Below, piece after piece: positions 10,076 through 60,190 of a DNA stretch of 64,000 nucleotides. Position 1 is the stretch's first letter; the number at the start of each line of letters is the position of its first letter. This DNA comes from Trileptium ribeirensis. Taxonomy: Eukaryota; Nematoda; Enoplea; Enoplida; Thoracostomopsidae. Made by a program: the position numbers and the translations under genes. The stretch spans positions 62,001-126,000 of the forward strand of contig JASANE010016281.1 of the NCBI GenBank assembly GCA_030248225.1, in the 5' to 3' direction. The notes below the pieces were generated by a model. That model was not told the DNA's origin. It ran no database searches and saw nothing but the letters and a program-made list of their open reading frames with translations.

Positions 10076-11127
10076 TTTCCCGCCCGACCTGACGCGACAA
10101 CCGTGTCAGCCCGACCCGACCCTACAACCGTGTCACCCGACCCGACGCCACAACCGTGTCAGCCCGACCCGACGCCACAACCGTGTCAGCCCGACCCGAC
10201 GCCACAACCGTGTCAGCCCGACCCGACGCCACAACCGTGTCAGCCCGACCCGACGCCACAACCGTGTCAGCCCGACGCGACAACCGTGTCAGCCCGACCC
10301 GACCCAACAACCGTGTCAGCCCGACCCGACTCGACAACCGTGTCAGCCCGACCCGACGCGACAACCGTGTCAGCCCGACCCGACCCGACAACTGTGTCAG
10401 CCCGACCCGACAACTGTGTCAGCCCGACCCGACAACCGTGTCAGCCCGACCCGACCCGACAACCGTGTCAGCCCGACCCGACCCGACAACCGTGTCAGCC
10501 CGAGCCGACCCGACAACCGTGTCAGCCCGAGCCGACCCGACAACCGTGTCAGCCCGAGCCGACCCGACAACCGTGTCAGCCCGAGCCGACCCGACAACCG
10601 TGTCAGCCCGACCCGACCCGACAACCGTGTCAGCCCGACCCGACCCGACAACCGTGTCAGCCCGACCCGACCCGACAACCGTGTCAGCCCGACCCGACAA
10701 CCGTGTCAGCCGGACCCGACAACCGTGTCAGCCCGACCCGACAACCGTGTCAGCCCGACCCGACAACCGTGTCAGCCCGACCCGACAACCGTGTCAGCCC
10801 GACCCGACCCGACAACCGTGTCAGCCCGACCCGACCCGACAACCGTGTCAGCCCGACCCGACCCGACAACCGTGTCAGCCCGACCCGACAACCGTGTCAG
10901 CCCGACCCGACCCGACAACCGTGTCAGCCCGACCCGACCCGACAACCGTGTCAGCCCGACCCGACCCGACAACCGTGTCAGCCCGACCCGACCCGACAAC
11001 CGTGTCAGCCCGACCCGACCCGACAACCGTGTCAGCCCGACCCGACCCGACAACCGTGTCAGCCCGACCCGACCCGACAACCGTGTCAGCCCGACCCGAC
11101 AACCGTATCAGCCCGACCCGACCCGCC
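10076..11127. repeat. Large CCCGACCCGACAACCGTGTCAG minisatellite
   Basis: About 1.05 kb of head-to-tail units exist in two sizes: 22 bp (CAGCCCGACCCGACAACCGTGT) and 27 bp with one extra CCGAC. An early block (10140-10270) uses GACGCCACAACCG. Size variants alternate in runs, as expected from unequal exchange or slippage. The units contain no stop in several frames of both strands, which creates long artificial ORFs of 395 and 399 codons rich in PDPTRQPCQ or RPDPTTVSA. Nothing suggests that these are proteins. Related degenerate CCGACCC words recur at about 12040-12105. Confidence 0.95.
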
Positions 11128-17000: not shown

Positions 17001-20000
17001 TTTCTGCGCTCACTGGGATTCTGCTCTTCGTTATAGGATGGTTTTGTCTGGCGATGGCCTAAACATTTAAAACATTCCAAATCAATTCGGTACGAAAGTA
17101 CATTCAGCGATATCATTGCGGTCTTTGGCGGAACTGTTGCAAATAACGTATCTGTGGGACACGCAATCGCAAATAAAACGACAATCAAAATGGCGGGGCT
17201 CTGTAGCAAAACCGTGGTATATTTGTACCAGTTTTCCAGAGACACATGTTACCAATTTTTAATCACAAATCTAGTTAAAACCGGTGCGGTAGGCGGAATT
17301 GTCAAGATTGAGGAATCGCTTCTGACTAAAAGAAAAATAATATTGGTCATGTTGTGGATCAACGTTGGATATTCGGAGGTTACTGTGCAACTACTTGGGA
17401 AAGATTTCTTGAATTTGTCCCTTACAGAAGCGCTGCGACACTACTCCTTATACTGCGACGCTGCGCAATACGTTTAAATGTAATCCATTCAGATCAATGG
17501 GCAGGTTATTTTCAGATTTCGCAGATACCAGTTAACTCGCCGTATCAACTTTTTACCGTCAATAACACGCGTAATTTTGTTTGCCCTGCGACTGGTGCTC
17601 ACGCAAATCACGTTGATTATTTTTGGAAAAATGCTAAGCAAAAAACAAAGATCATGTGTTCGAATCAATCGAATCTATCATCGAATACAATTGAAAGCCA
17701 TATGGACGAATTTTATGGAGGGAACATTACAGAAAATCGGGCATGCATGCATTCAGTTCAAATAATAGTCATATTGGTTTGCTATACCCAGCACGAAAAC
17801 TTTGTTATAAATCCATGTATTCTGATGAAAAATTCGAAAAAATTTTGTCAGTTCAGTTTACTTATGAGAAATTTGGTGCCAACCACCAGTATTAGACTTA
17901 TTCACTAAACGTGTGAGTCTCTCACGTAAAATTTGATTTTGATTTGAACATGTTGTAGATTTCGAATGGCGCAAGCCTGTCGGCTATTGTAAACCTGGAT
18001 TTGTCAGAACATAATACAAAATTATGTAACTTCACAGGGGCGCAATACGCTACTCGGAAGTTGTTAAGGTGGCAGGCGCGCTGATGAGTAAGGGGGTGTT
18101 TGCGGAAAATTGCGGATCGCTGTCTAGGGCCGGTTCACCGACTCATCTTCCTGCGCCCCTGGTTATTCAGTTTCATTCATGAACTCGTAATGAAGTATTG
18201 TAACATCCTGAACGCAGATTACGTCGCTACACATCTTGTTCATGTTGCTACTATATACACATATTGTTACTGTTTATAATGAATACTAAATGATATGTAA
18301 CCTATATCCAACTAACTTTTTACAAAAAGTACTGTTGAGTAGCAATTAAGAATACATATCGAAAAATAAAATATATAGTCTTGCTGGCCAATCGCGACTC
18401 ATTTTCGATATAGACACTATTAAGACCGTTGAAAAATATGCTTGGGCTAATGTAGAGGTGCTAAGTACAGGAGTGTCGATACTACAATATTTGGTGCATG
18501 ACCTGGCCTACTGTGTATGTGGCCTTTAGCTAATGCTTAGTAATACTCTTCTTATTTTGTATTCACACTATATATATTGTTATTATTGCAACCGAGATAA
18601 TCAGCGAGCAATTAGAGTATCAGTAGCGTAAATAATTCTTGAAAAAAGGAAAAATTCAGGCACTGAAGACGACATGTATGACTGCTAGTATCCAAAATTC
18701 TCTATTCTAACGCTTATCATAACCATAATTTAACCCAAATGGTTTTTTTAATTTCTTGCCTTCAACAAGTCCTTAGCCGTTTTCTTTCAACTATATAATA
18801 ATTTCTTTACAACATTTTCTGTTTTACACTCTATTCTCTGAATGGTGGAATATATATGCTTGGAATTGAATGCGAAATATTTCTACGTATGGAAAGTGTT
18901 TTGTCATTTTTGATGTCTCGAACTATCAAAGCTTAAAAACATCAAGTGAAATACTTTGATTTGATATGACGTGTCTTGTGTTCACATGCATTGTCGCTTT
19001 ATGTGTTTCTACCAGGTGGCCATTTTTTACTTCCATACATACAATTTATTTTCAATGTTGTCAGATATGTACCATATTTGTCAGCAATTGTACGCATATC
19101 TATGTAGGATCGCATAGCTAGAGTAAATAATTGGCTCTAAGCATTAAATAATTTCGATCAGGTGTTTTGTGACAGTGTGCCAGATCTTGCTTGCTCTGTA
19201 CATGCACGTTTAAAGCTGAAGTACCTTTACAAGAATATTTGGATCGTTTTAAATAGACATGTAGATTTTAGTTTACTTTCACTTATAGATAGAAATATGC
19301 TACAGAATTGCTGTAGAAGCATTACAAAATTTCGTTTGTGCATCAATTTTGTAAAGATAATTCACATAAGCATACAAAAATTTCACCACTTGCTGACTGT
19401 GTTAAAATGTTAAACATTTTAGGAATGATGATCGGAAGTTATCTTTGGGGCACGTTGAGCGATATTATTGGCCGGCGTCCAACAATGTTTATTTCCCTGT
19501 TCCTTAATGGTCTATTTGGTATTTTATCGGCATTTTCGTCTGGATATTGGAATTTTGTGATATGTCGTTTTCTCAGTGGGCTTGGGTAAAAATTTTTAAT
19601 ATCTCAATCATAAAAATTTTTAACTGTTTTGTTTGAGTTTTGTATTCGCATAAAATCTTGTGTATGCAGCTCTTACTAATCTTTTTTGGAACTACAAATG
19701 GATGCAGATATGGGGATAGTGAGTCCAGACGCACACTTTTTACACAGCGCGACTGAACCCATCGCTTTTTAGTCTTGATGTGAAGTCCACACCCCGCTGC
19801 ACTGTTTAGTGTTTTCTGGTCTAAATAATAACAAATCTAAACTTAGGTACAGTACCTACCCGCTAAAAATGACTGTTGGTCGCTCTCGACTCGTTCGACA
19901 TAAATTTGGTTTAAATATAGTTTTTATTAATTTATTTATAATTTTTTATTAATTTAAATAGTTTCGAAATGTCGAAAGAGTCACTTGCTCGAGGCTTGCT

Positions 20001-45044: not shown

Positions 45045-45893
45045 TTATAATCCTTGTTCTGCTAATCGTCGTAATATTCTTCGCCGTTTAGCACCTTGTC
45101 CGCGTTTCGTGTTTCGACGCATTTCATCGGAATCGGCAGGAAGGTGACGGCGCTCACCTTCAATATTTTGCGGTTGCTGACCGTTATCGTTCGATTCATG
45201 GTGATCGATTTCGTTATTCACTGGATGGACAATGGGTTCCTGGATAACTGCTGGATTGGCTGTGCAGTTGTGATGAATTGTATCTTCATCTGGTTTGAAC
45301 TTTGGGAGAGATAACTCCATTTGTCTTTTGCCCAAGCGTGGATCAGCGGGGGGTTGTGGTCCTTCGCGTCGTGGCGAAAGCGGTACTATGCGCGGTATTT
45401 TGTACAGCACTTTCTTAATTGTATCGTTATCTTCACGTTTACGCTTTGAAGTCCGAATTGCAGTTGAAGTAGGAATAAACGACAACAACAACTCCCGCTC
45501 CCGATTACCGTGGGCGTCCGGAGATCGACAGTACGATTTGAATCGTGTGATGTCTGGCATGCGCCAATTTGCTGCGGGATCGTATTCGTTTGCTGATGCA
45601 GTAATTGCTCTATCGACCGGTTGGAAATAATTACTCGACCAGGTCTCGTTGCAACTCGGTTCCCACTTTATTAATTTCTTGCCTTTCTCGCGTCTATGTA
45701 ACTTTCGGCGAGAAGATTCGCGTGACGGTAATTTAACTGTGATGGAGCATCGCGCCATATACGAAACTATGAATGTTGTAGCTGCTGCTCCAACCCGGCC
45801 TGGACAGTCCATGTCATAATGACCATTATACAGTTGCGCAGTTCCTTCACATATTCGGGTTACCGCGAAATGAGGGGATATATTATGTGACAT
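45045..45893 (-). CDS. Accessory ORF 2 of the retroelement (Arg-rich, 282 aa)
   Basis: An intact ATG-started ORF between the polypurine tract and accessory ORF 1. No known family is recognised. It is strongly basic. A segment at residues about 101-136 (YDPAANWR, DITRFKSYCRSPDAHG, then an acidic/Leu stretch) is clearly shared with the 392-aa neighbour. The C-terminus is an arginine-rich block (TKRGQGAKRRRILRRLAEQ), the kind of sequence that can act as nuclear localisation or RNA-binding signal. Its position 3' of pol is where retroviruses keep regulatory or envelope genes; a Rev/Tat-like role is only a guess. It would need a spliced or subgenomic mRNA for translation. Confidence 0.7.
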   Translation of the reverse strand: MSHNISPHFAVTRICEGTAQLYNGHYDMDCPGRVGAAATTFIVSYMARCSITVKLPSRESSRRKLHRREKGKKLIKWEPSCNETWSSNYFQPVDRAITASANEYDPAANWRMPDITRFKSYCRSPDAHGNRERELLLSFIPTSTAIRTSKRKREDNDTIKKVLYKIPRIVPLSPRREGPQPPADPRLGKRQMELSLPKFKPDEDTIHHNCTANPAVIQEPIVHPVNNEIDHHESNDNGQQPQNIEGERRHLPADSDEMRRNTKRGQGAKRRRILRRLAEQGL

Positions 45894-47064: not shown

Positions 47065-48243
47065 TTATCTACGTCCGCGACGCTGCTGTTGTTTAACTAT
47101 CTCGCGCCACTTGGACAGGTAGCGTTCCCTTGACGCTTTCCCCCGTCGCCGTGCACGTTGGTAGTTCATATTTGATTCACTCGCCTGATCACGGACGCAC
47201 TGCCATTGTGGGACATGCTGATGTTGTGCGTATTGTTGGCGATAATGTTGCTGATTTCCATATTGCAATTCGAAAGCAGTTAACCGTGAACTGGTTGACG
47301 GTAACGGTTCCGCAACATTGTATTGCAGCGGGGAAACGGTGTTACCATACTTCTCTGGCGGCGATATTGTATTACCCGTAAAATTCGTGCCCACCGTGGA
47401 ATTGCCAACCAAATGATGCGTATTATAAGTCATAAAATGTGCGATTGTTGCAGCTATTATTGCTATATTTCGCGCTTGCACAGACAACTCTCCCGAGCGA
47501 TTTGCTTGGAAAGATTGTTCCGTAGCACCATTTATCTGTGCTTGATGATCTGTCTCCGCTTTATTTTGCTCTGTACCGTTTGAAGTTGTCTCGGCGATAA
47601 CCACATTTGGTTGTATATTAAAATCGTGACGCGTCACCGATTCTATATCCACCTTGCGGTTCGCATGTTGTTTCATTTCGGACAGCAGCTGTGCTGTGCG
47701 CGATCCAGGAGCGTCTGGTGACCGATTAGACGACCTTAACCGCGTAGTATCCGGTGGTGCGTCCTCTGTTTTCCCATTGCCATTTACCTTCCAGTTGTAT
47801 ACCGGATCATATTGCAATTGGAATCGGGCCCTCGATCGGATTGTTTTGTCACTCCACCCATTGTGATCTGTATCAGCATAGTATTTGCGATGAAATTGAA
47901 CCCACCGTCGACAACTAACATTACTTTTGATCAATGGTAACTGGTTTAATTGCCAAATGCCGGTAGACTTTCTGGACGCACGATGATCTCTCGCACTGTT
48001 ATTTGATGGAATATTTCGCTGTTTACCGTGTGCGTGTCGATGTTTAGCAGGTGTATTTTTAGCACGTTGACGTCGTTTATCTGGATCCTGACGTTTACGC
48101 TCTGCCAACCCGGCCTTTGTGCGCGTCGTAAGTTGATGCTGCTTATTACTGTCGATTGGCTGCGAAACGTTAGTATGCGTAATTATAATGCCATCCTCAA
48201 CTTCGTGAATTTCCACACTGGGCTCTTCCCCAATGTCATCCAT
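47065..48243 (-). CDS. Accessory ORF 1 of the retroelement (392 aa)
   Basis: An intact ATG-started ORF that begins 175 bp after the stop of the giant polyprotein. It has an acidic N-terminus (MDDIGEEPSVEIHEVEDG), a basic Lys/Arg/His-rich stretch (residues about 45-90), and a WQLNQLPLIK..CRRWVQFHRKYYADT segment. The shared motif YDPVYNWK...DTTRLRSSNRSPDAPGS at about 135-180 is followed by a Gln/Asn/Thr-rich half and an Arg-rich C-terminus. The same motif in accessory ORF 2 makes the two paralogous, probably by duplication within the element. No database family is recognised. A regulatory or nucleic-acid-binding role is inferred from composition only. Confidence 0.7.
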   Translation of the reverse strand: MDDIGEEPSVEIHEVEDGIIITHTNVSQPIDSNKQHQLTTRTKAGLAERKRQDPDKRRQRAKNTPAKHRHAHGKQRNIPSNNSARDHRASRKSTGIWQLNQLPLIKSNVSCRRWVQFHRKYYADTDHNGWSDKTIRSRARFQLQYDPVYNWKVNGNGKTEDAPPDTTRLRSSNRSPDAPGSRTAQLLSEMKQHANRKVDIESVTRHDFNIQPNVVIAETTSNGTEQNKAETDHQAQINGATEQSFQANRSGELSVQARNIAIIAATIAHFMTYNTHHLVGNSTVGTNFTGNTISPPEKYGNTVSPLQYNVAEPLPSTSSRLTAFELQYGNQQHYRQQYAQHQHVPQWQCVRDQASESNMNYQRARRRGKASRERYLSKWREIVKQQQRRGRR

Positions 48244-48418: not shown

Positions 48419-51400
48419 TCACTTCTGGTATGAACGTAAGTTATACCTTCTAGCTGGTACCGATACTAAACGGCGTTTCCTTGTACAAACATTTGAGTGT
48501 TGTGTTTTGCCATTTACCATTATTCTTCCATCATCCTGGTCTTCATTTAAACTGAACTTACTGTCACTACGTAGCCTAGATACAGCTAATTTCGCGATTC
48601 CGGTTACATGAGTTTCTTTACTCATGCACTGTGATGATTTTCCACGGCGTACACTAATTGAATTACTACATGATCGATCCGTATTCGGTATTTCTGTGTA
48701 CTCCTTTGTTGGGTCAACTGGCCCATGGTATTTCACTGCAGTTTGACCGGATTGCTCTGCCAATTCGTCAAGTTCGTCATCTGATTCTATTAAACTCTGC
48801 TCGTGTTTTGTAGGTGCTAATATAGGAGTGTCAATGGGTGCCTGCTTCAAACGGCGAACGTTAACACGTTTAGGTGTATTTCTGATCGATTTAAATACTG
48901 GTTCGACAACTGCTCCAGTTCCATCTGCCGTAAGTTCGGTTACCCGATATGGCCCCCTCCAATGACGAGCGAGCTTCTTCGACTTGCCACGTACGGTAGG
49001 AACATGCAAATACACTTTGTCTCCCTCAACAAAAGGAAGATTTCTTGCTTTACGATCATGGTAAAACTTTTGTTTGTCCTGCGCCTTTTGTACGCATGTT
49101 GACGCCAACTCCCATGCTTCGTGGAAGCGGTTACATAGCGAAAACACAAAGTCCTCCGTATCTGACTCTTCTCCATGGTTCGCTCTTGTCATAAGATCGA
49201 TGGGTAGCATTGGGTCTCGACCAAAATTTAAGAAGAACGGTGTTTCCTTCGTGGTCTCGTGGACGCTACTTCGATAAGCAAAACACGCGTAAGGCAAGAT
49301 CTCGTCCCAGTTGTCTTGATTCGTATTAACGTATAGGCTTATCATTGCTTCCATTGTACGATTAAATCGTTCCACCATACCGTCACACGCTGGATGATAG
49401 GCCGCGGTATTCAGTTTCTTAATACCCAGCAGTCGACATACTTCCATCATTGTCTCGGAGATAAGATTTGGTCCCCGGTCAGTGAGAAACCGCGCAGGCA
49501 CCCCAAATCTACATACTATTTGTTCCACAAATATTTTAGCAATCGTTGTTGATTTCATATCAGCTACAGCAACACATTCTACCCACTTTGTAAAATAATC
49601 CATGAAAACTACGACATATTTATTTTTGGACTTTGTTAGCGGCAAAGGCCCCACGATGTCACACGCGATTTGGTACCACGGAGCGACAACAGGGATAGGC
49701 TGTAATGGGGGAATGGTGTACTTCGTTGGATTTTTCCTTGTTGCACATGCGGCACAGCTCGCACACCACCGTTTCACATCACTGTATACTGTGGGCCAAT
49801 AGAAACGATCGGACACCTTCTTAAACGTTTTGCGTATGCCTAGGTGACCACCTAACAAATGGTCGTGGCAGGCGATCAAAACTTGTTCCCGCAACGTTTT
49901 TGGCACATAACATTGCATTTGTCCCCGCACGTTACTTTTATGGTATAACATTCCCTGCACCAGACTCCAATCGTCATTTGCCGTCTCGTCCGTTGATTCT
50001 AAACGTGAAATTATCACTCTTGCGAAATCATCATTCGTCTGTGCTTCGTGCCAACTGTTAGTGCCATCTTCTATACTGTCCGTAGTCACGTCGATATTCG
50101 CTACTGGCGCGACAGTTATTTCCTCGTTGACTGATGCCTTAAGCATGTCCGTACAGGTTTGACAGCTTGTCAGCGACTCACCCAAATCGCAATTCTGTAA
50201 TGTCGGTACATTCTCCCGTCTGCGCGACAAAGCATCCGCGTTTGAATTCTCTTTGCCAGGCTTGTGCACAATCGTAATGTCGTATTCTTGTAGTAGCAAG
50301 CTCCATCGACATAACCTGCCATGAGGATCACGTGCAGTTAGCAACCATTTTAACGGCTGGTGATCTGTCACCACCGAAAATCCTCGACCGTACAGGTATG
50401 GCCGGAAATGTCGTATTGCCCAAACAACAGCAAGTGTTTCTCTTTCTACCACTGGATATTGCCGTTCAGCCTTTGTTAATGTACGACTCGCATAAGATAT
50501 CGGATGATCCTTGCCGTTGTCGTCGGTTTGGCTGAGCACAGCGCCGATAGCTTTATCGCTTGCATCAGTTTGAACTATAAATGGCTTGGAGAAATCAGGA
50601 AACGCAAGAATTGGTTTACTGGATAGCCGCGATTTCAGCTCATCAAATGCGCGTTGGCAATCATCCGACCACATAAACTTCGTATTCTTCTTGTATAATG
50701 CGTGCAGGGGTGCTGCAATTTTCGCGAAGCACCACACAAATTGTCGATAGTATGATGCTAGGCCCATAAAACTTTGCACTTCCTTGGCGGACGACGGTAT
50801 TGGCCAATCGATGATCTTACGGACCTTTTCACATTCGGGAAAAAATCCGTCACTAGACAACACGTGTCCAAGATACGGCACACTGCTTCGTCCAAACTGG
50901 CATTTTTTCATGGTTAGCTTAAGATCGGCCAACCTTAAACGATCGAAAACCATTTTTAATCGTTGAAGCAATTCATCCGGTGTTGATCCAATAACTAAAA
51001 TATCGTCGAGATAAACTAGGCAGATCTTCCAATCTAAACCAGCTAACACGTTCTCCATCAACCGCTGGAAAGTAGCTGGAGCATTCGATAACCCAAACGG
51101 TAATTTTCGGAACTGGTAAAGTCCATCGTACGTGATAAACGCTGTTTTATGCTTACTACTAGTGTCCATCTGTATTTGGTGATAACCACTTTTCATGTCC
51201 AGTGTACAGAATAACTTCGCCTTATTTAGCGAACACATTACATCATCGATACGCTTCATAGGGTAACTATCCCTTCGAGTAACTGCATTCAATTTTCTAT
51301 AGTCCACACAGAATCGCCACGTACCATCCTTCTTTTTTACTAACACAATAGGAGAAGCCCACTCGCTTGTGGATGGTTCAATTATTCCATTGTTAAGCAT

Positions 51401-54400
51401 TTCCTTGACCTTCCTCGTTACAACTTCGCGCAGTGAGAATGCTGTTCGGTAAGGCTTCTGTCTTATTGGCGCGGCTGTTCCAGTGTCGATAACGTGTTGA
51501 ACCCCTTTTGCGGACCCTAGATTATCATCACCCGAAGCAAACAAATCACTATATTCCTGAAGCAACAGTAGTAGTCGGTTTCGATCACTTCCTAGTAAAG
51601 CACATTCGGTCAAGTCCAGATCTTCCAACATTTTGGATTTGTTGTCGTTGTCAAGTGAGCTAGTACCTTGTACAGAGTTCACAATTGCGTCTGAAGCACA
51701 GACTTGTAGATCCACATCGTTAAGTTGGCTTTGTGACAGCTGTATGTCGGTCGCTATGCGCACGCCACTGTGCAAGACTGCGGGTGCATCCGTTGGATTC
51801 AGTAGCCGAATAGGAACACAACCGTCACCCATAGCTTTACAGACAGTTGGCGCTCCAACGATGTGATGTCGCTCCATGGCCGCCGGATGCGGTTCAAGTA
51901 ATCGTGGTCTGCTATCTATCCTGCCTGATTTCGCCCACACTAAAGCTTCTGTCTTCGGTGGAAGCTTGATGGTGTCGATCAGCGTTACATACATTGGTGA
52001 ATCTGCATCTGCAATAGCCGAATCGCCCAGCTGCACGACTTGGTCATTGAACGTTAGGATGCCATTGCGATAGTCTAATTGGAACTGTCCCAGTTGCTTC
52101 AAAAAGTCTCTGCCTATAATCACGTCATATGGCAAGGTCGGCGATATAGCCAACGGTCCTTCGAACTTACTGTTCGCCAATTCCACGACAGCATTTAGAA
52201 TTCTTGAAATTGGCATCATATGACCAGAAGCTGACCGAACGGACCCTGAACTAATTTTTGTGCATGCAGTCCACTGCGGTATACGTTGCGTGGCCGCCGC
52301 TGAAATGATTGAAATTTGTGCGCCTGTATCGATAAGCGCATCCATCTGAATCCCGTTCACAGTTATTTTAGCTGTTCCAGCATTTCCATCCGTCACGAAA
52401 GCGGAGTTCAGGTTGTAGGGTTGAAATCGTTGGTTAGTTGTCGGTTGGCTGTCTGTCGCGGATGATTCGGTCTCTGCATTACGCTCAGGCAAGCTGGTCT
52501 GAAACACGGTAACCGTTTCGACGGTGGCGTTCTCTTCGGCCACCGGTAGAGAAACGCTTTCCATCTGAGCCATGGTTGCAGCGGTAGGTCGTCTGCCTAT
52601 TCTCGCAAATTTAAGCGGCATACGAAGTTGGTTGGAAGCCAGTCGTGTGAATGTCTGCCTTATCCATCTACGCAGTATTTTCCACAATACATTCAATGTG
52701 ACAAAGGCACAACAACAAAAGATCCATAATTGTCGTAGATCTAAGTCTATGCCAAATAGAAAACTGAACAACCCGGCGCGTACTATCCTGGACGCTGCCT
52801 TGGTGGCTGTTTGTTCGACGGACCGATCCTCGGAATCTACCCCTAAAGCACTCAATATCTGCTGTTGTTGATTGTACACGTGGAAAATATCGTTTAAGGT
52901 AACATGAGTGCGCAGTTCTGCAACGTGGTACATCACGACTGGTTGAAATATAATATCCGGCAATAGTGTCGTATTCGGCAACGCCCAAGATGCGTAATTT
53001 GGCAACGTTCTGTAGTCGTTGATTACCCGTATAGAACCTGTTCTGCTATAGCTATATGTGCCGTTTCTAAGTGTTATCGGTACTTCCTCGGTTAGCTGAC
53101 AGTCAATATCGTGACTATATTGTGTGATGATATTTGTTTCCGCATCCATATAACCTTGTCGCGTGCTGTTGGCTATCCGATATATTAATGGTACGCCCTT
53201 AGTGCAACTCCCGTTCATGGGCACAAAACTGAAATGTCCATTTTCCAGTTCGATGCAGGGCCATATTTCGACAAAATCTCCGGCTGCCGAAGCAACAAGA
53301 TTAGAGTGCTTCAGCCAGGCCCTCATGGCCAGCGTCGGGTTTGCCGCAACAAACACCTTGACCATGCGGCCCATGTGTTGCATCAAATTACACGTGGATG
53401 CCATGGCATGATCAAACGCAAACGATATTGATCGTGTAGTATGGATTTCCAATGCCTGTAGGCTAGACGCTAGTAATTCGGATGTAACAATTCCAACGTC
53501 ACTATTGTCACGTTTTCGACGAAGTTTTGGTTGACCCGACCTTGACGCTTTATGCTGGCTCGCCAAATGCTTCACGAGGACATGAGCTCCGAATTTAGTT
53601 GACTTGTGATCTTTGGACACAATTCGGAACGGAATTCCCTGGTTACTCATGTGCAGTTGAGTACCATTGCAGCTTTGCACTGTTTCTTCACTTCCGAACG
53701 TCAGCGCTAATGTACCATCTGCGGAAACCCATTGCGTGCCACGTAGTGCACCAGACATCGTTCGCCACGCTAAGTATTCGCATTGTTCGACCAGATTTGG
53801 CTCCCAAATCAAAAATCGGCCGTTACTTATGGCACACGATCCTCCAACATAGGAGCAGTGTTTCACATCACCGGCCGTTGATTCCATTACTGTTTCACCG
53901 TGCCGCTTGTACACGTTGGCCGTTGTCAGAATACAGTTTGTGGCTTCGAACTTATTCCAACGACAGCAGTGAATGCCCCCGCCGGGATAGCTCCAATCCA
54001 GTTTATTATCGGTCATCCACATCGTGCCGTGTTGCTTAAGGACACCCGCGGAACATTCTTTAAATTCTTTCATCCTTCTGCACTCTCCTTTGGATACCGA
54101 TTCATCCTTTCTTGCTGTCTTCTTCAGGTTTTCGTCGTTGAAAAAATAGGTGAATGTTTCCACTTGAACTGTTGCTTTCGAACACAACCAAGCTTGACTG
54201 ACATATTGAATCACATTTTTCCTATATAGCTGTATTACCGCATCTACTGGGGATTCGGCTCGCTGCCTGGCGATCGGTCCACATGGCCGTGGATCAGCCA
54301 ACCGCCAAATTTGCCTGTCGGTGTGCCTCTGGCATATTAGCGGATTTGTACTTGTAGCGTTCCCGGCTATTGCTGCAACTAGACCCGTTACAATTGCGAT

Positions 54401-57400
54401 TATCAGCAAAACTTGAAATGATGTTCGATTCGCGCGCCGCACTGTTTCCACGTCACCCATCGACCTCGGCTGTTTCGTTGCTGTCCGTTGTTGATGCAAA
54501 CTCTCCCCGTTTGACCGTTCTTCGTGATTTTTGGAATCAAAGTTAGGGCTTGACGCGCACTTCCTAATCCTTGTCGGTCTCGGTCGATCGATTTCCCCTG
54601 AGCGCACTTTTGTTACCATTAGATCGAATAGCTTCCGACGAAGTCGTCGCAACATCGTCGGACTCGTCGGAGGTTCAGTGTGATTTTGCACCGCTCCTAG
54701 GATACTCTGTTGAGAGCATTTTTGTACTTCACAGCTGACGTTCCGCGCTCGCTCCTCCTCTTCTTCCGCGTCCAAACTTTCCTCCCGTTCTATACGTAGC
54801 GCTTCCAACAATCGTAGTCGCGGTATCACTCCAGCTGGCAACAAACGATCGGATATTCGTTCTGGAGGATGCTGTTCAGCTTCCGGTAAGTCCTCGTGGT
54901 TAACACGCATTGCGCCGAACAAGAAACGACGAGTGATCATTATTCCTATATTTGCTGATGTATACGCAACACCCCATTCTGGCCTTCCGTGCTGAGCCAT
55001 CTGCGGCGTAGCGAATCCGTGGACGCGGAACGAGAACGATTCGCCTAATCGGAACATTGCCAGATCCGTAAGATACGGCGGTTGGGTTAAAACATATTGA
55101 ATTTCGTCTTGTAAGATATTGTCGTTTTCGATTACGGAGTGTACAACTCCGGGTGTACGCAGCTGTCGCACGTAGAAGTCTAGGTAGTGTCGGAAGCAGC
55201 GTAGTTGGTCGGGTGCAACATCATTACGGCGCGTAACATTTGACCAGTAAACCCGCTTGATTGGGATGCGCAGTGTTTCCAGAACAGCGTGTGTACGCCG
55301 GAGGCCGCGCGATATCTGGCTAATTATTCTCTGTTCATATTGCCCCTCCTCAATTTCATCTGCAGACAAGTTATAGGCTCCAGCGTGGATGACTATGGTG
55401 AGTATTATTCCATCAGTTGCGATTGCTTCCAGTGCTTCATCCAACAGTTCGTCAACTTGTTCTAGTTTTAATCCAGGCCTCCAAAATATACTAGTGTTTG
55501 GAACGTGTTCCATACGTTGCAGTTGATCATCACCGATAAACAGATACCAGTCAGTTAGATTTGACAATATCGGCCGACGGGCTACTCTCGGTCTTGCGCC
55601 TTGCTGATTCATCTGACCAACATTCAAATTCTGAAACGGGCGGCGATTATTGCCATCACCTACTTGTGAACGATCGCCATTCCAAGTCGGAGGTCCTTGG
55701 TCACTTCCAGCACAATTGACATTGGGCCCAACCATCCGCTTTGGACCGCAGCAATCCGTATTGTCTGATTTGGTTACACTAGCAAGTGCTGCAGATTTTG
55801 CCATGTACTCCCCGTTGCTCGTATACACGCCGACAGCTTTGTCTCTGTCATCCTTTGACGTACGATCATGCTCCCTACTTCTGAACGACTTTTCCGAATC
55901 GACATTGTGTTGTGGCTGCTGTGTTCGGCTTTCTAGCAGTTCCTTTTTCGTACCAGCTAACCGTGGGCCTGGCGCACTGAAAGCCACTACATCGACGATA
56001 GCAGCTGACCGAACAACACCGTTTGAACTGTTCAACGTTCGCTTTGCATGATCATAAGCAGTACATTGGTCCATGTTAGCTACTAATTGATGAACGGCGT
56101 TCGCGTCCTCTCGACATAAGCCGACGTTATCAGCATTGCTGTTTTTTCGCACTGGTTCGTAACACTGTTGCGACCGATTAACAGTATCTGCGTTCCGATA
56201 CCTACCTCCAGTCTTCGGTTCGGCGTCCGTAATCTGTGCTGCTAACGACTTAGCAACTACCGTCGCTTCCTGCGACTCGATACAACTGACTTTGGGAATG
56301 TTCGGAAATTTTGTAATAGGTCGCTGCTGTACGTCAGAACTACCAAGCGATCGGGAAGGGTTTGCCGCTTGGTAACCATTGTCACCAGTCGCGGTAATGT
56401 TTACCAGCTGCCAAGAAGGCAAGACTTGATTACACGTTACCGTACCAAGAAATGATGTGAAGGTCGGTTGGGCGACATCTGAGTTAGTTGCGTTGTGCGC
56501 GCCGCCGTCCGCGGCTTCGCTTTGGGCACCTGCTAGCGGACTTTTCATGTGTTGTAGTGCATTGGCGAACGGTGTGCGAACAGTATTCGCATTACCTCGC
56601 ACCGGTGCGTCCCTCTGTCTAAATTGCCTGGATGGACCCGTTCGTAGTTGGGTCCCAGTTGGCCTTGATCTTTCTGCTGCTCTCCTCGCGCGGCAGTCTT
56701 CAGTACGATGCCCTGAGCGGCAGTGATACTCGCAATAGCCATTGCGTTGAGACCCTTGGTTGCGGCACTGCAACGCTGTGTGACCCGACTTAAAGCAAAT
56801 TTGGCAGATGGGGCGATTTGACAAGTTGAAGTTTTGTCTTCCATACATAGTTGAGCCGAAGTCGCGGTATGTGCCGCCAGAAGCGCCGTTCTCACGCGAG
56901 CTAGCAGTGTTAGTGGCTGTACACGCTGATGGTGCCGTTTCCAGTTTTTCCAGCCTTTGTGTTATGCGGTCAAGCAAGTGTACTGACTGTAGTGGCAGAC
57001 AAGAAGCTGTGTCCGTTGCGCTCCATTGATTAACCGCGGACAAACTAGCAGTGGTGTCTTTTTCAGCCTTCAACTTCGTTTCAATTCTTTCCGCGGCTAA
57101 GATAGCCTCAGCCATGGAACTTGGTCCCATCACCTTTACTTCCTCTCGGATGCGCGGTTGCAAACCTGCTATGAACTTATTTCGTAGATTAGTCTGCTTT
57201 TCGGCATCCACTGTCATGTAGCTCAGAGCTGACTGCGCCAATTCAGTAAGCGACTGGGCGTAGCGACTAACACTTTCGCCAGACCTTTGCGTACGGATGT
57301 CATACTCGTCGCTCAGGAACCGTTTCCGATCCTCGGTCATGAGTTGTTGCTCCAATGTGACAACTAGTTGGTCGTAATTTTGCTTTACGACTTCGCTAAG

Positions 57401-57934
57401 CCCGTTGTACACAAACCTAGCGTGTCCCGCCAAATGTACGCCCAACAAAAATGGTTTGTTGGCTTCGGGCCAGTTGTTTGCCAAAAACTTGATTTCGAAT
57501 TCGTTTTGTCGCCAGCTCTGGAAGTCCTCAGTCTTGTCCCCATTAAACGGTGTAATTGGTATGTTAGGCCCACGATTATTCATCTTTCCGTGACCGGAGC
57601 CTGTGTGATTCGATGTTACTTGCGTAGCGTTATCTAACGCCTGATGCAATAGCTGTTCGTGCTTCACCAAGGTATCAGCCTGTTTTTCCAAATCGTTTTT
57701 CGTGGCATCCGCCAGGGTACTGAGCGAAATGTGGTTCCGATCTAGCGCTGATTGCACCGCTCGGCTTTGTTCCAAAATACTAGTCGACGATCTATGTGTG
57801 ATGGAAGTATTATCGGACAATATTTTCTGATGGCTGAGTATCGCCTCACGGACAGTATCTAATTGCCCAGCTATTAGGTTTGCTGTATGCGTTGAGCGTA
57901 CTGTTTTCTTCGCAGATTGTTTTAGTCTTCTCAC
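48419..57934 (-). CDS. Gag-SGNH-Env-Pol polyprotein of Ty3/Gypsy-type element (3,171 codons)
   Basis: One uninterrupted frame, GTG to TGA. Residues 1-117 are coiled-coil-like; the first Met is 118. Then come: Gag capsid-like region with zinc knuckles 377-390 (CX2CX4HX4C) and 401-414 (second Cys replaced by His); a low-complexity linker; an SGNH-hydrolase-like domain at about 793-985 (FIGDDQL at 799, HAGAYNL at 850); and an envelope-like module with a hydrophobic segment (1173-1192), Cys-rich ectodomain, furin-type RRKR at 1472-1475 and a transmembrane helix near 1732-1760. Pol follows: aspartic protease LIDTGA (Asp1869), RT (YLDD 2308-2311), RNase H (TDASDKAIG), integrase zinc domain (from His2690), DDE core, and GPY/F near 2993. 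Normal Gypsy elements have env after pol. GTG directly follows an in-frame TAA, so the true start (non-AUG, spliced leader exon, or Met118) is open. Confidence 0.92.
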   Translation of the reverse strand: MRRLKQSAKKTVRSTHTANLIAGQLDTVREAILSHQKILSDNTSITHRSSTSILEQSRAVQSALDRNHISLSTLADATKNDLEKQADTLVKHEQLLHQALDNATQVTSNHTGSGHGKMNNRGPNIPITPFNGDKTEDFQSWRQNEFEIKFLANNWPEANKPFLLGVHLAGHARFVYNGLSEVVKQNYDQLVVTLEQQLMTEDRKRFLSDEYDIRTQRSGESVSRYAQSLTELAQSALSYMTVDAEKQTNLRNKFIAGLQPRIREEVKVMGPSSMAEAILAAERIETKLKAEKDTTASLSAVNQWSATDTASCLPLQSVHLLDRITQRLEKLETAPSACTATNTASSRENGASGGTYRDFGSTMYGRQNFNLSNRPICQICFKSGHTALQCRNQGSQRNGYCEYHCRSGHRTEDCRARRAAERSRPTGTQLRTGPSRQFRQRDAPVRGNANTVRTPFANALQHMKSPLAGAQSEAADGGAHNATNSDVAQPTFTSFLGTVTCNQVLPSWQLVNITATGDNGYQAANPSRSLGSSDVQQRPITKFPNIPKVSCIESQEATVVAKSLAAQITDAEPKTGGRYRNADTVNRSQQCYEPVRKNSNADNVGLCREDANAVHQLVANMDQCTAYDHAKRTLNSSNGVVRSAAIVDVVAFSAPGPRLAGTKKELLESRTQQPQHNVDSEKSFRSREHDRTSKDDRDKAVGVYTSNGEYMAKSAALASVTKSDNTDCCGPKRMVGPNVNCAGSDQGPPTWNGDRSQVGDGNNRRPFQNLNVGQMNQQGARPRVARRPILSNLTDWYLFIGDDQLQRMEHVPNTSIFWRPGLKLEQVDELLDEALEAIATDGIILTIVIHAGAYNLSADEIEEGQYEQRIISQISRGLRRTHAVLETLRIPIKRVYWSNVTRRNDVAPDQLRCFRHYLDFYVRQLRTPGVVHSVIENDNILQDEIQYVLTQPPYLTDLAMFRLGESFSFRVHGFATPQMAQHGRPEWGVAYTSANIGIMITRRFLFGAMRVNHEDLPEAEQHPPERISDRLLPAGVIPRLRLLEALRIEREESLDAEEEEERARNVSCEVQKCSQQSILGAVQNHTEPPTSPTMLRRLRRKLFDLMVTKVRSGEIDRPRPTRIRKCASSPNFDSKNHEERSNGESLHQQRTATKQPRSMGDVETVRRANRTSFQVLLIIAIVTGLVAAIAGNATSTNPLICQRHTDRQIWRLADPRPCGPIARQRAESPVDAVIQLYRKNVIQYVSQAWLCSKATVQVETFTYFFNDENLKKTARKDESVSKGECRRMKEFKECSAGVLKQHGTMWMTDNKLDWSYPGGGIHCCRWNKFEATNCILTTANVYKRHGETVMESTAGDVKHCSYVGGSCAISNGRFLIWEPNLVEQCEYLAWRTMSGALRGTQWVSADGTLALTFGSEETVQSCNGTQLHMSNQGIPFRIVSKDHKSTKFGAHVLVKHLASQHKASRSGQPKLRRKRDNSDVGIVTSELLASSLQALEIHTTRSISFAFDHAMASTCNLMQHMGRMVKVFVAANPTLAMRAWLKHSNLVASAAGDFVEIWPCIELENGHFSFVPMNGSCTKGVPLIYRIANSTRQGYMDAETNIITQYSHDIDCQLTEEVPITLRNGTYSYSRTGSIRVINDYRTLPNYASWALPNTTLLPDIIFQPVVMYHVAELRTHVTLNDIFHVYNQQQQILSALGVDSEDRSVEQTATKAASRIVRAGLFSFLFGIDLDLRQLWIFCCCAFVTLNVLWKILRRWIRQTFTRLASNQLRMPLKFARIGRRPTAATMAQMESVSLPVAEENATVETVTVFQTSLPERNAETESSATDSQPTTNQRFQPYNLNSAFVTDGNAGTAKITVNGIQMDALIDTGAQISIISAAATQRIPQWTACTKISSGSVRSASGHMMPISRILNAVVELANSKFEGPLAISPTLPYDVIIGRDFLKQLGQFQLDYRNGILTFNDQVVQLGDSAIADADSPMYVTLIDTIKLPPKTEALVWAKSGRIDSRPRLLEPHPAAMERHHIVGAPTVCKAMGDGCVPIRLLNPTDAPAVLHSGVRIATDIQLSQSQLNDVDLQVCASDAIVNSVQGTSSLDNDNKSKMLEDLDLTECALLGSDRNRLLLLLQEYSDLFASGDDNLGSAKGVQHVIDTGTAAPIRQKPYRTAFSLREVVTRKVKEMLNNGIIEPSTSEWASPIVLVKKKDGTWRFCVDYRKLNAVTRRDSYPMKRIDDVMCSLNKAKLFCTLDMKSGYHQIQMDTSSKHKTAFITYDGLYQFRKLPFGLSNAPATFQRLMENVLAGLDWKICLVYLDDILVIGSTPDELLQRLKMVFDRLRLADLKLTMKKCQFGRSSVPYLGHVLSSDGFFPECEKVRKIIDWPIPSSAKEVQSFMGLASYYRQFVWCFAKIAAPLHALYKKNTKFMWSDDCQRAFDELKSRLSSKPILAFPDFSKPFIVQTDASDKAIGAVLSQTDDNGKDHPISYASRTLTKAERQYPVVERETLAVVWAIRHFRPYLYGRGFSVVTDHQPLKWLLTARDPHGRLCRWSLLLQEYDITIVHKPGKENSNADALSRRRENVPTLQNCDLGESLTSCQTCTDMLKASVNEEITVAPVANIDVTTDSIEDGTNSWHEAQTNDDFARVIISRLESTDETANDDWSLVQGMLYHKSNVRGQMQCYVPKTLREQVLIACHDHLLGGHLGIRKTFKKVSDRFYWPTVYSDVKRWCASCAACATRKNPTKYTIPPLQPIPVVAPWYQIACDIVGPLPLTKSKNKYVVVFMDYFTKWVECVAVADMKSTTIAKIFVEQIVCRFGVPARFLTDRGPNLISETMMEVCRLLGIKKLNTAAYHPACDGMVERFNRTMEAMISLYVNTNQDNWDEILPYACFAYRSSVHETTKETPFFLNFGRDPMLPIDLMTRANHGEESDTEDFVFSLCNRFHEAWELASTCVQKAQDKQKFYHDRKARNLPFVEGDKVYLHVPTVRGKSKKLARHWRGPYRVTELTADGTGAVVEPVFKSIRNTPKRVNVRRLKQAPIDTPILAPTKHEQSLIESDDELDELAEQSGQTAVKYHGPVDPTKEYTEIPNTDRSCSNSISVRRGKSSQCMSKETHVTGIAKLAVSRLRSDSKFSLNEDQDDGRIMVNGKTQHSNVCTRKRRLVSVPARRYNLRSYQK

Positions 57935-59191
57935 TTATCGCACACACACCAACGCGCCTATTAAACGTGTTCTCAGCTGCTCTGTCCCCCTCCCGTCCGG
58001 CCCCTCTCTCTCTTTAATTAAAAGCTCGCGGCCCCCTCCCTGTTAGCGCGCCGCGAGGGAGATCCAATAATTACTGCCCGCCCCCCCCCCCCCTACATTT
58101 TATTTTTCAGCCCCATCATCCCCCTTAAGCCCTACGCTCAACTCATTCGCCGTACGCGCCAACTGTGCAACTCTTCCGCTTATTCCTCCAATTTTTTCCC
58201 CCTTATACGCCAGCATGCCACCAATCCCCCCCTTCCCACCACTTCTAACTTTTGGTTTTCTTTTTCTTACTTACCTTCCTCCCTCCTTCTATCCTTTTTT
58301 GCTTGGTTGTATCGCTCCCTCCCACCATTTATTCCATATACCATACACTACCCCTCTCCCCCTCTAATACTTATAACCTCTCCCCTCGCCTACTCATCAA
58401 TTCCATCAACCCCCTACACAACAATAAAAAAATAAAAATCTCTTATCATAGTCTATAATAATAAAAAATAAAAATACAACAAAAATATTCACCACAATTA
58501 CATTTCATTACCACCAGCAACAACTATCCAAAATCCCATAAAACACACAAAATATATAAAAAAAATATCAAAATTTCATCTACTTTACATAATATACACA
58601 CAATCATTATATATTCACACAACTCACAAATCACACAATATATATAATACAAAAAATAACCTTTATTATAAAAACAACCAGCTATAAAGAACTTCTTCCC
58701 GCCAAGAAACAAAAAATTAATTAAATATATATAAAAAAAAATCAATTTAAATATCAAATCTTATCAAAATAAATTATAAATTTCTTAAAAATTACTTGAT
58801 GACTCAGAAAAAACTAAACCATTCAGCTAAAAAAAAAAAAACAAATCATTATTTTATAATATACACAAAATTTATATAAAAAATATACAAAATATATACA
58901 TATATATATAAAAATATATATATTTTGAATTAAAAATTATATAAAAAATAGAAGTCACAATATTTTATCCAATAAAATCATATCAAGGTGCTTCTCTTTT
59001 TTAAAAAATTTTTGAATATTTTTTATTTATTATTTTAAATTTAAAAATTCTACTAACAAATATATATTCCTACAAAATCAAAAATTTATAAAAAAAAAAA
59101 ATACAAAAAAAAAAATAATAAAACAAACTAAACTAAAACTACTATCGAAATCTCAACTATTTATATCTATCTGTAATCAATCACAAAAAAT
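57935..59191. other. G-depleted, pyrimidine- then A-rich junction sequence
   Basis: After the polyprotein's first codon the plus strand becomes C/T-rich (C-run at about 58080) and then A/C/T-rich. By eye only three G occur between 58321 and 58680. No LTR, primer-binding site or gene is visible. It links the retroelement to the polymerase element and may be real asymmetric DNA, an extreme leader region, or unreliable consensus. Confidence 0.7.
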
Positions 59192-60190
59192 TACATAGCT
59201 AATAATTTTTACATTATAATAGAATAACTTTTTAAATAACTGTCATAAAGTAACAAAAATTTATACTTATAGGTGTTTTTAATATTCTGATTTCATTTCT
59301 ACTATTTAAATAAAGCTAAGTTACATAGCTAATAGTTTATAGACTATTTGTTAATAACATGATAAGTATTAGTAGTAAAGTTATCAAAATTGGTAACTAT
59401 AGGTATTCCACTATGAGGAATTTTATTATTTTATTAAAATTTGCATAAATTACATAGCTAATAGTTTACGGGTTATGTATTAATAACTTTATAACTATTA
59501 ATAGTAAAGTTACCAAAATTGGTAACTATAGGCTTTCGACTATGAGGAATTTAATTATTTTATTAAAATTTGCATAAATTACATAGCTAATAGTTTACGG
59601 GTTATGTATTAATAACTTTATAACTATTAATAGTAAAGTTACCAAAATTGGTAACTATAGGCTTTCGACTATGAGGAATTTAATTATTTTGTTAAAATTT
59701 GTGTAAATTACATAGCTAATAATTTATGCGTTATTCCTTAATAACTTTATAACTATTAATAGTAAAGTTATGAAAATTGGTATTTATATGTTATCGACTA
59801 TGGGGAATTTAATTATGTTATTAAAATTTACATAAAGTACATAGCTAATAGCTTATGGGTTATTCGTTAATAGCTTTATAACTATTAGTAGTAAAGTTAC
59901 TAAAGTTGGTAACTATATGTTATCAACTATGGGGAATTTATTTATTTTAATAAAATTTGCATAGATTACATAGCTAATAATTTATGAGCTTTTTGGTTAA
60001 TAACTTTATAACTATTAGTAGTAAATTTGTGAAAATTCATAATAATAGGTTTTCAGCTACGTTGAATCTAATTATGGTTACATAGCTAATAATTTATAAT
60101 AACTTCATGACTATTAGTTGTAAATTCATAAATATAGGACGCTGAATCTCATACGCTTATAGCTAATAAATATGAGTAGCAAATTTGGTT
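59192..60190. repeat. 129-bp tandem repeat array upstream of the DNA polymerase ORF
   Basis: The word TACATAGCTAATA starts at 59192, 59322, 59451, 59580, 59709, 59838, 59967 and 60079, giving a period of 129-130 bp (last interval 112). Units at 59451 and 59580 are almost identical; the outer ones are diverged. Each full unit contains ACTATTAATAGT (perfect palindrome) and GTTACCAA..TTGGTAAC arms. Its place directly before the polymerase start suggests a terminal or promoter/origin region of that element. Confidence 0.9.

What the first reader, a model, noticed from the sequence alone, without database searches (positions are those of the whole stretch)
48419..57934. Envelope-like glycoprotein embedded between Gag and Pol in a single Gypsy-type ORF
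Seen: one 9.5-kb frame contains zinc knuckles, then a hydrophobic segment, Cys-rich ectodomain, furin-type RRKR and membrane helix, and only then protease, RT, RNase H and integrase. Known: Ty3/Gypsy errantiviruses and retroviruses carry env 3' of pol and express it from a spliced RNA. Inference: here the pol enzymes would be made as the cytosolic tail of a membrane-spanning precursor, or splicing must separate the modules. The region after RRKR weakly resembles the mononegavirus/chuvirus-type fusion glycoproteins found in some LTR elements, which would mean an independent capture.
Basis: partly seen in the sequence, partly recalled or inferred. Interest (0 to 1): 0.88.

Follow-up and report, generated by a model that had tools for sequence, protein, structure and literature searches.

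The report
Gypsy retroelement with mid-polyprotein envelope
This is a family of retrovirus-like jumping genes in an unidentified animal genome that carry a virus-type membrane fusion protein in the middle of one giant polyprotein, between the shell protein and the copying enzymes, rather than at the end as in textbook retroviruses.

Summary
Env scores to the Monjiviricetes/chuvirus fusion family and gB, below Pfam cut-offs in the window but above in one relative.

It is neither a one-off nor a misassembly. The same genome gave 72 env loci (583 candidates, 72 scored), 15 in open frames of at least 2800 codons; RT follows at a nearly fixed distance. Proteins from other assemblies show gag-env-PR in one frame. 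Env is under purifying selection.

Only two hydrophobic segments occur in the ORF and they bracket Env, so Gag and Pol would both be cytosolic. Most likely Env is made inside one Gag-Env-Pol precursor cut by signal peptidase, furin and PR; splicing is not excluded.

Other Gypsy families in this genome carry different modules in the same slot: an apparently F-like Env, or a helicase. The slot looks like an exchangeable bay. New variant of env-carrying Gypsy elements; the most relevant survey (Chary and Hayashi 2025) could not be read.

The parts
48419..57934 (-). single gag-env-pol open frame, 3171 codons
57158..57439 (-). Gag capsid-like region (residues 166-259)
   Evidence: PF03732 E 7.8e-4, below cut-off
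56680..56815 (-). two zinc-knuckle-like motifs (about residues 374-418)
   Evidence: read; PF13917 E 0.34
54986..55624 (-). SGNH-hydrolase-like domain (residues 771-983), serine position replaced
   Evidence: motifs read; homologous stretch in other copies; no Pfam hit
54362..54418 (-). first hydrophobic segment, signal-type (residues 1173-1191)
   Evidence: kept in 16 of 20 loci whose match reaches it
52730..54361 (-). Env ectodomain (residues 1192-1735)
   Evidence: PF24664 and PF00606; alignment A1
53510..53521 (-). furin-type RRKR (residue 1472)
   Evidence: R-x-K/R-R in Env of 20 of 20 own-genome loci examined
52673..52729 (-). second hydrophobic segment, membrane helix (residues 1736-1754)
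52088..52378 (-). aspartic protease
   Evidence: PF00077 4e-11
51640..51760 (-). mosaic breakpoint between two element subfamilies
50861..51340 (-). reverse transcriptase
   Evidence: PF00078 1.8e-34
50282..50596 (-). RNase H
   Evidence: PF17917 2e-44
49391..49906 (-). integrase: zinc-binding domain and core
   Evidence: PF17921 1.7e-22, PF00665 4.5e-13
48947..48955 (-). GPY motif of integrase C-terminus
47065..48243 (-). accessory ORF P0002, Arg-rich C-terminus
   Evidence: homologues after pol in three other copies
45045..45893 (-). second ORF P0003, shares a short motif block with P0002
   Evidence: E 1e-7; membership in this element uncertain

Best explanation
A multi-copy Ty3/Gypsy-type LTR element whose captured, probably class III (gB/chuvirus-like) envelope glycoprotein sits in frame between nucleocapsid and protease. 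Shown: the order, the open frame, its conservation across copies and assemblies, purifying selection on Env, and that only two hydrophobic segments exist in the frame and bracket Env. Inferred: the ribosome makes one Gag-Env-Pol chain; the first segment opens translocation into the ER; signal peptidase frees Gag; the ectodomain is glycosylated and cut by furin at RRKR; the second segment stops transfer; PR, RT, RNase H and IN are made on the cytosolic side and PR frees them. Env then lets particles pass between cells.
For: Open frames of at least 2800 codons around Env at 15 of 72 loci. 8 of 20 loci examined are open to about the 500-residue flank limit on both sides of an Env without stops; 16 of 20 have an in-frame protease motif after Env; none of 20 has NPGP. 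RT follows Env by 1237-1510 nt, same strand, in 40 of 40 paired contigs. P0012 from another assembly has Gag, Env and PR in one ORF; P0011 has Env and PR. Two hydrophobic segments only, bracketing Env. Env pS 0.78-0.85 against pN 0.16-0.26 versus L010/L011. P0011 has a 2A sequence just before the Env signal peptide, so in that relative a frame leading into Env appears to be translated.
Against: No RNA or protein data. A full chain gives equal Gag, Env and Pol, unusual for retroelements. Gag itself has no in-frame AUG in its first 100-167 conserved codons in six copies, so the start of translation is unclear and a 5' exon is possible. Window Pfam scores for Env are below curated cut-offs. The fold model is poor, pLDDT 51.7 and pTM 0.29. 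In L010/L011 Gag-side and Env frames differ, though those copies are decayed.
Confidence: 0.6

Rival explanations
1. Same element, but splicing separates the modules: an Env mRNA with a 5' exon joined upstream of the signal segment, and/or a Gag-Pol mRNA with Env removed.
For: Insect errantivirus Env is made from spliced RNAs (passage in PMC12992720) and Cer1 CERV comes from a spliced mRNA (PMC10309623). Gag lacks an in-frame AUG for 100-167 codons, which a 5' exon could explain.
Against: The frame stays open from Gag through Env into PR in many divergent copies and in P0012, which splicing would not need. No splice analysis was possible without RNA.
Confidence: 0.3
2. Env is released by ribosome skipping (2A) or by internal or re-initiation.
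For: A canonical 2A motif stands before the Env signal peptide in P0011.
Against: No NPGP in the window pieces searched or in 20 own-genome loci. Several loci show no Met in the stretch printed before the signal segment (by eye), though the window has one.
Confidence: 0.07
3. The inserted region is a captured cellular secreted protein, not a viral fusion glycoprotein.
For: Window scores to PF24664 and PF00606 are below curated cut-offs; no PDB sequence match; poor model.
Against: PF24664 is hit by the window and by six of the ten other proteins scanned: P0006, P0007, P0008, P0010, P0011, P0012, P0008 above cut-off; signal, furin-type site, membrane helix and Cys pattern are conserved.
Confidence: 0.05
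4. Misassembly or a nested insertion produced the order at this locus only.
For: A corrupt stretch lies beside the ORF and a mosaic breakpoint inside it.
Against: Other contigs span gag-env and the breakpoint at about 97-98% (L002, L003, L004, L013); the order recurs in divergent copies and other assemblies.
Confidence: 0.01

Closest known systems
Errantiviruses and other env-carrying Ty3/Gypsy elements (Metaviridae)
   Same: Gypsy-type pol, LTRs, a viral-type envelope glycoprotein with furin-type site and membrane helix
   Different: There env is a third ORF after pol, F-type, made from spliced RNA in the insect elements (passages of PMC12992720); here Env lies between nucleocapsid and PR and is gB/chuvirus-like. 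Chary and Hayashi 2025, the metazoan survey, was not held and could not be compared.
Anakin (BEL/Pao elements with chuvirus glycoprotein, mosquitoes; PMC7642597, passages)
   Same: Capture of a chuvirus-type glycoprotein by an LTR element
   Different: BEL/Pao rather than Gypsy pol; single frame with Env before PR not described in the passages seen
Bdelloid rotifer LTR elements (PMC5408684, passages)
   Same: Exchange of extra modules, including paramyxovirus-type F Env and GDSL/SGNH esterases, among LTR elements
   Different: There the extra ORF3 lies downstream of pol; here SGNH-like and Env modules lie upstream of PR in one frame, and the SGNH serine is replaced
Cer1 of C. elegans and its CERV protein (PMC10309623, abstract and passages)
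   Different: No sequence relation was tested; Cer1 has no Env between gag and pol in the passages seen
Flavivirus and alphavirus structural polyproteins (recalled)
   Same: Works-like: capsid and glycoprotein in one chain, separated through an internal signal and host signal peptidase
   Different: Analogy only, unrelated viruses

Membership tests
Ty3/Gypsy (Metaviridae) | pol order PR-RT-RNase H-IN | tested here: met
Ty3/Gypsy (Metaviridae) | GPY/F motif at integrase C-terminus | tested here: met
   GPY at residue 2994; also present in Retroviridae and Odin according to PMC12440569
Ty3/Gypsy (Metaviridae) | LTR pair with TG..CA ends and target-site duplication | tested here: met
   C9082 copy: LTRs 96.4% identical over 675 nt; ends and a possible 4-base duplication inside an AT repeat read by eye. 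Not found for the window copy itself
Ty3/Gypsy (Metaviridae) | RT tree position | not tested
   no named reference elements at hand
Errantivirus | env as a third ORF downstream of pol, baculovirus F type | tested here: not met
   Env lies before PR and scores to PF24664/gB
Retroviridae | gag-pol-env order | tested here: not met
Class III fusion glycoproteins (gB / Monjiviricetes) | family profile above cut-off | tested here: inconclusive
   window 22.3 bits against 27; P0008 30.3 bits, passes
Class III fusion glycoproteins (gB / Monjiviricetes) | class III fold | tested here: inconclusive
   model pLDDT 51.7, pTM 0.29; fold searches not run, machine full
Anakin | BEL/Pao pol | not tested
   no BEL/Pao reference compared; GPY motif argues for Gypsy
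SGNH hydrolases | catalytic serine in block I | tested here: not met
   D or E at that place in the window and in the 5 divergent loci printed; block III Asn kept; Pfam no hit
Class I F-like Env (L050 family) | match to known F proteins | tested here: inconclusive
   no Pfam hit; all nine PDB sequences at E up to 1 are called fusion glycoprotein, E 0.11-0.72

The most novel reading that the evidence does not exclude
A Gypsy lineage has an in-frame module bay between nucleocapsid and protease. In this one genome it has held a class III glycoprotein with an SGNH-like domain, a class I F-like glycoprotein, and a superfamily 1 (UPF1-like) RNA helicase, each inside one giant polyprotein. Envelopes are swapped in place and made as the membrane-spanning centre of a Gag-Env-Pol chain.
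Probability: 0.5. Interest if true: 0.93.

Novelty: new variant of a known kind. Interest (0 to 1): 0.86.

Why it matters
Where the passages I read give a position, env of env-bearing LTR elements lies 3' of pol. A conserved Gag-Env-Pol chain is a different answer to how a retrotransposon becomes retrovirus-like, and poses a testable question of how one chain is threaded through a membrane and still yields soluble Gag and Pol. Families in the same genome with other modules in the same slot make envelope gain, loss and swap directly testable.

Tried and rejected
No relatives of Env in viral contigs or genome contigs: 27 and 159 pattern hits, none confirmed. A protein search with a longer piece found nothing at E 0.01. 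PDB sequence searches with Env gave one haemoglobin-like chain at E 0.018 and, with the profile, none. No tRNA and no Rfam family in the window. LTRs of the window copy were not found; its 5' side is corrupt, and own-genome searches with the window's two flanks did not complete. I considered that L010 and L011 show a separate Env ORF and set it aside because both share further frame breaks inside Env. Protease readings of P0006 and P0008 are by eye without Pfam hits and are not counted.

Papers. Abstract and passages: PMC12440569, PMC10309623. Passages only: PMC5408684, PMC13172572, PMC7642597, PMC12859917, PMC12992720, PMC5563155. Chary and Hayashi 2025 (eLife 108449) is not held; I saw only how others cite it. 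Novelty rests on the listings of searches. In 72, none of the 20 listed of 3,866 held 'gag-env-pol'; one (that term with 'LTR retrotransposon') found 0 papers; one (LTR retrotransposon, UPF1, helicase domain, gag) found 3, and in the passages of the one opened the helicases are in non-LTR elements.

Full report
What is there. The frame 48419-57934 lies on the minus strand and runs 3171 codons without a stop. Pfam on five overlapping pieces gives, in order, Gag, a viral fusion glycoprotein (PF24664 3.8e-5, PF00606 2e-4), PR, RT, RNase H and integrase. The Gag, PF24664 and gB scores are below Pfam's curated cut-offs. A motif-level SGNH-hydrolase-like domain lies at residues 771-983, before the first hydrophobic segment. 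Pfam does not see it; its serine position is D or E in the window and in the five divergent loci printed, and a homologous stretch is present in other copies. The integrase carries a GPY motif.

Topology. A 19-residue hydropathy scan of the pieces finds only two hydrophobic segments, 1173-1191 and 1736-1754, on either side of the Env ectodomain; RRKR is at 1472. With the first as signal and the second as stop-transfer, Gag and Pol are both cytosolic (inference). In own-genome loci a P-[LM]-x-C type motif after the first segment is found in 16 of 20; in the other four the Env match begins further in.

Relatives elsewhere. A protein search found 5 relatives and a profile search 11 in all, the 5 included, each at E 2.7e-86 or better. 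P0012 has Gag (PF03732 1.2e-11), zinc knuckle, Env and PR in one 1835-residue ORF; P0011 has Env and PR in one ORF. P0009 has a zinc finger, a Gag part related to that of L050, then Env. The other eight show no gag or PR hit in Pfam or were too short. P0011 carries a 2A sequence just before the Env signal peptide. A furin-type R-x-K/R-R lies in the ectodomain of 7 of 11 (P0006, P0007, P0010, P0011, P0012, P0015, P0016); P0008 has such motifs only after the membrane helix, and P0009, P0013 and P0014 have none, the last two being short pieces. Three bear bacterial MAG labels; I take these as eukaryotic contamination (inference).

Copies in the same genome. The window is part of a 687-Mb assembly of 20229 contigs. 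A 601-base Env probe gave 15 matches, 7 at 94-100%, the window included. The Env protein gave 73 matches at 72 loci, 72 candidates scored of 583, so a lower bound. 15 loci lie in open frames of 2800 codons or more and 30 in frames of 2000 or more; many of the rest have stops. Of 20 loci examined, 8 are open to about the 500-residue limit on both sides and have no stop in Env, 16 have an in-frame protease motif, 20 have a furin-type site, none has NPGP. I copied 47 of the 150 RT rows by hand; 40 share a contig with an Env row, and in all 40 RT lies 1237-1510 nt after Env on the same strand, 39 of them within 1237-1365. Of the seven without an Env row, two (C14708, C9082) have Env by DNA. A tree puts the 20 own-genome Envs in one clade, support 1.0, against six outside relatives.

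Selection and mosaic structure. Window against L010 and L011: Env pS 0.78-0.85, pN 0.16-0.26; gag pS 0.77-0.82, pN 0.23-0.26. Synonymous change is saturated, protein change is not, so Env has been held by selection. Against close but broken copies the ratio is higher: L012 Env 0.60-0.84, L014 0.57, L019 1.23 over 73 codons; L013 0.14-0.29. RT-RH is nearly identical to L010/L011 (pS 0.10-0.13) but saturated against L012, while gag to PR is the reverse. The window element is therefore a mosaic joined between PR and RT, near 51.64-51.76 kb. L002, L004 and L013 cross this point at about 97-98%, and L003 too, with a gap further on, so the join is real.

Full element. The C9082 copy has two LTRs, C9082:5435-6109 and 17818-18491, 96.4% identical over 675 nt. 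An accessory ORF after pol (P0002) has homologues in the same place in three other copies, 24-36% identical over their main stretches, with saturated pS and pN 0.36-0.53. Its position recalls CERV of Cer1; no relation was tested. P0003 shares a short block with it.

The slot in other families. Below the Env family the RT list holds a group at 53-57% identity, some with frames near 2450 codons. One, L050, has Gag, zinc knuckle, a different glycoprotein, then PR and the start of RT in one frame. That glycoprotein has a furin-type site followed by a hydrophobic, glycine-rich stretch, and a membrane helix. Pfam does not recognise it. All nine PDB sequences listed at E up to 1 are called fusion glycoprotein, one naming hMPV, at E 0.11-0.72: weak singly, consistent together. 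It gave 77 matches, 72 candidates scored of 2147, with 12 loci in frames of 2400 codons or more (counted by hand). It lies 1189-1195 nt before RT in 13 contigs present in both lists; a fourteenth, C5251, has a truncated match (by hand). Further families, L051 and L052/L053, have a superfamily 1 helicase (AAA_12 5.9e-48 and 4.7e-50, AAA_11 3.5e-42 and 1.4e-40 in L051 and L052), then PR and the start of RT; no hydrophobic segment was found there. L053 was not scanned by Pfam but is 98.7% identical to L052. A zinc knuckle precedes the helicase in L051 and L052; the L053 stretch begins too late to show it. 'UPF1-like' is my reading of the helicase motifs. The relation between families rests on RT identity and on 27-31% identity over PR and the start of RT, not on a tree.

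How it works. I think the whole chain is translated, Env enters the ER through its internal signal, signal peptidase and furin cut it, and PR releases the enzymes. Splicing remains a serious rival. Neither has been tested.

Limits. The fold model is poor and fold searches could not be run. The host is unidentified. Novelty is relative to the papers I could open; the most relevant survey was not held.

Noticed in passing
L051 (C9293), L052 (C19153), L053 (C12059): Gypsy elements with a superfamily 1 helicase in frame between zinc knuckle and protease (Pfam in L051 and L052). Such a helicase could act on RNA decay or silencing; function not tested.
   Followed up: partly
L050 (C15084) and the loci: A different, apparently class I F-like glycoprotein in the same gag-PR slot, many copies, 12 loci in frames of 2400 codons or more.
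   Followed up: partly
leaders of L010, L016, L018, L022, L047, L048; window 57587-57934: Gag has no in-frame ATG in its first 100-167 codons, and the leader plus this stretch hold 0-2 ATGs in any frame where 6.5-12.9 are expected (six copies). L015 has one ATG 60 nt upstream. Non-AUG start or a 5' exon is likely.
   Followed up: partly
P0011: A canonical 2A ribosome-skipping motif directly before the Env signal peptide in a relative from another assembly.
   Followed up: partly
window 57960-59200: G falls from about 20% to 1-6% over about a kilobase, and related copies lose similarity there: probably corrupt assembly that hides the 5' LTR.
   Followed up: partly
window 51640-51760: Mosaic breakpoint: gag to PR from one subfamily, RT-RH from another.
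   Followed up: yes
window 59188-60091: Tandem array with a 129-base period.
   Followed up: no
window 10082-11125: 27-base tandem repeat, about 40 copies, open in several frames.
   Followed up: no
window about 19.4, 24.5, 34.7 and 37.7 kb, plus strand: Exon-like pieces of a sugar-transporter/SV2-type membrane protein, recognised by eye; probably a host gene with long introns.
   Followed up: no
P0008, P0009, P0016: Retroelement Env proteins filed under bacterial MAG names, probably eukaryotic contamination.
   Followed up: no
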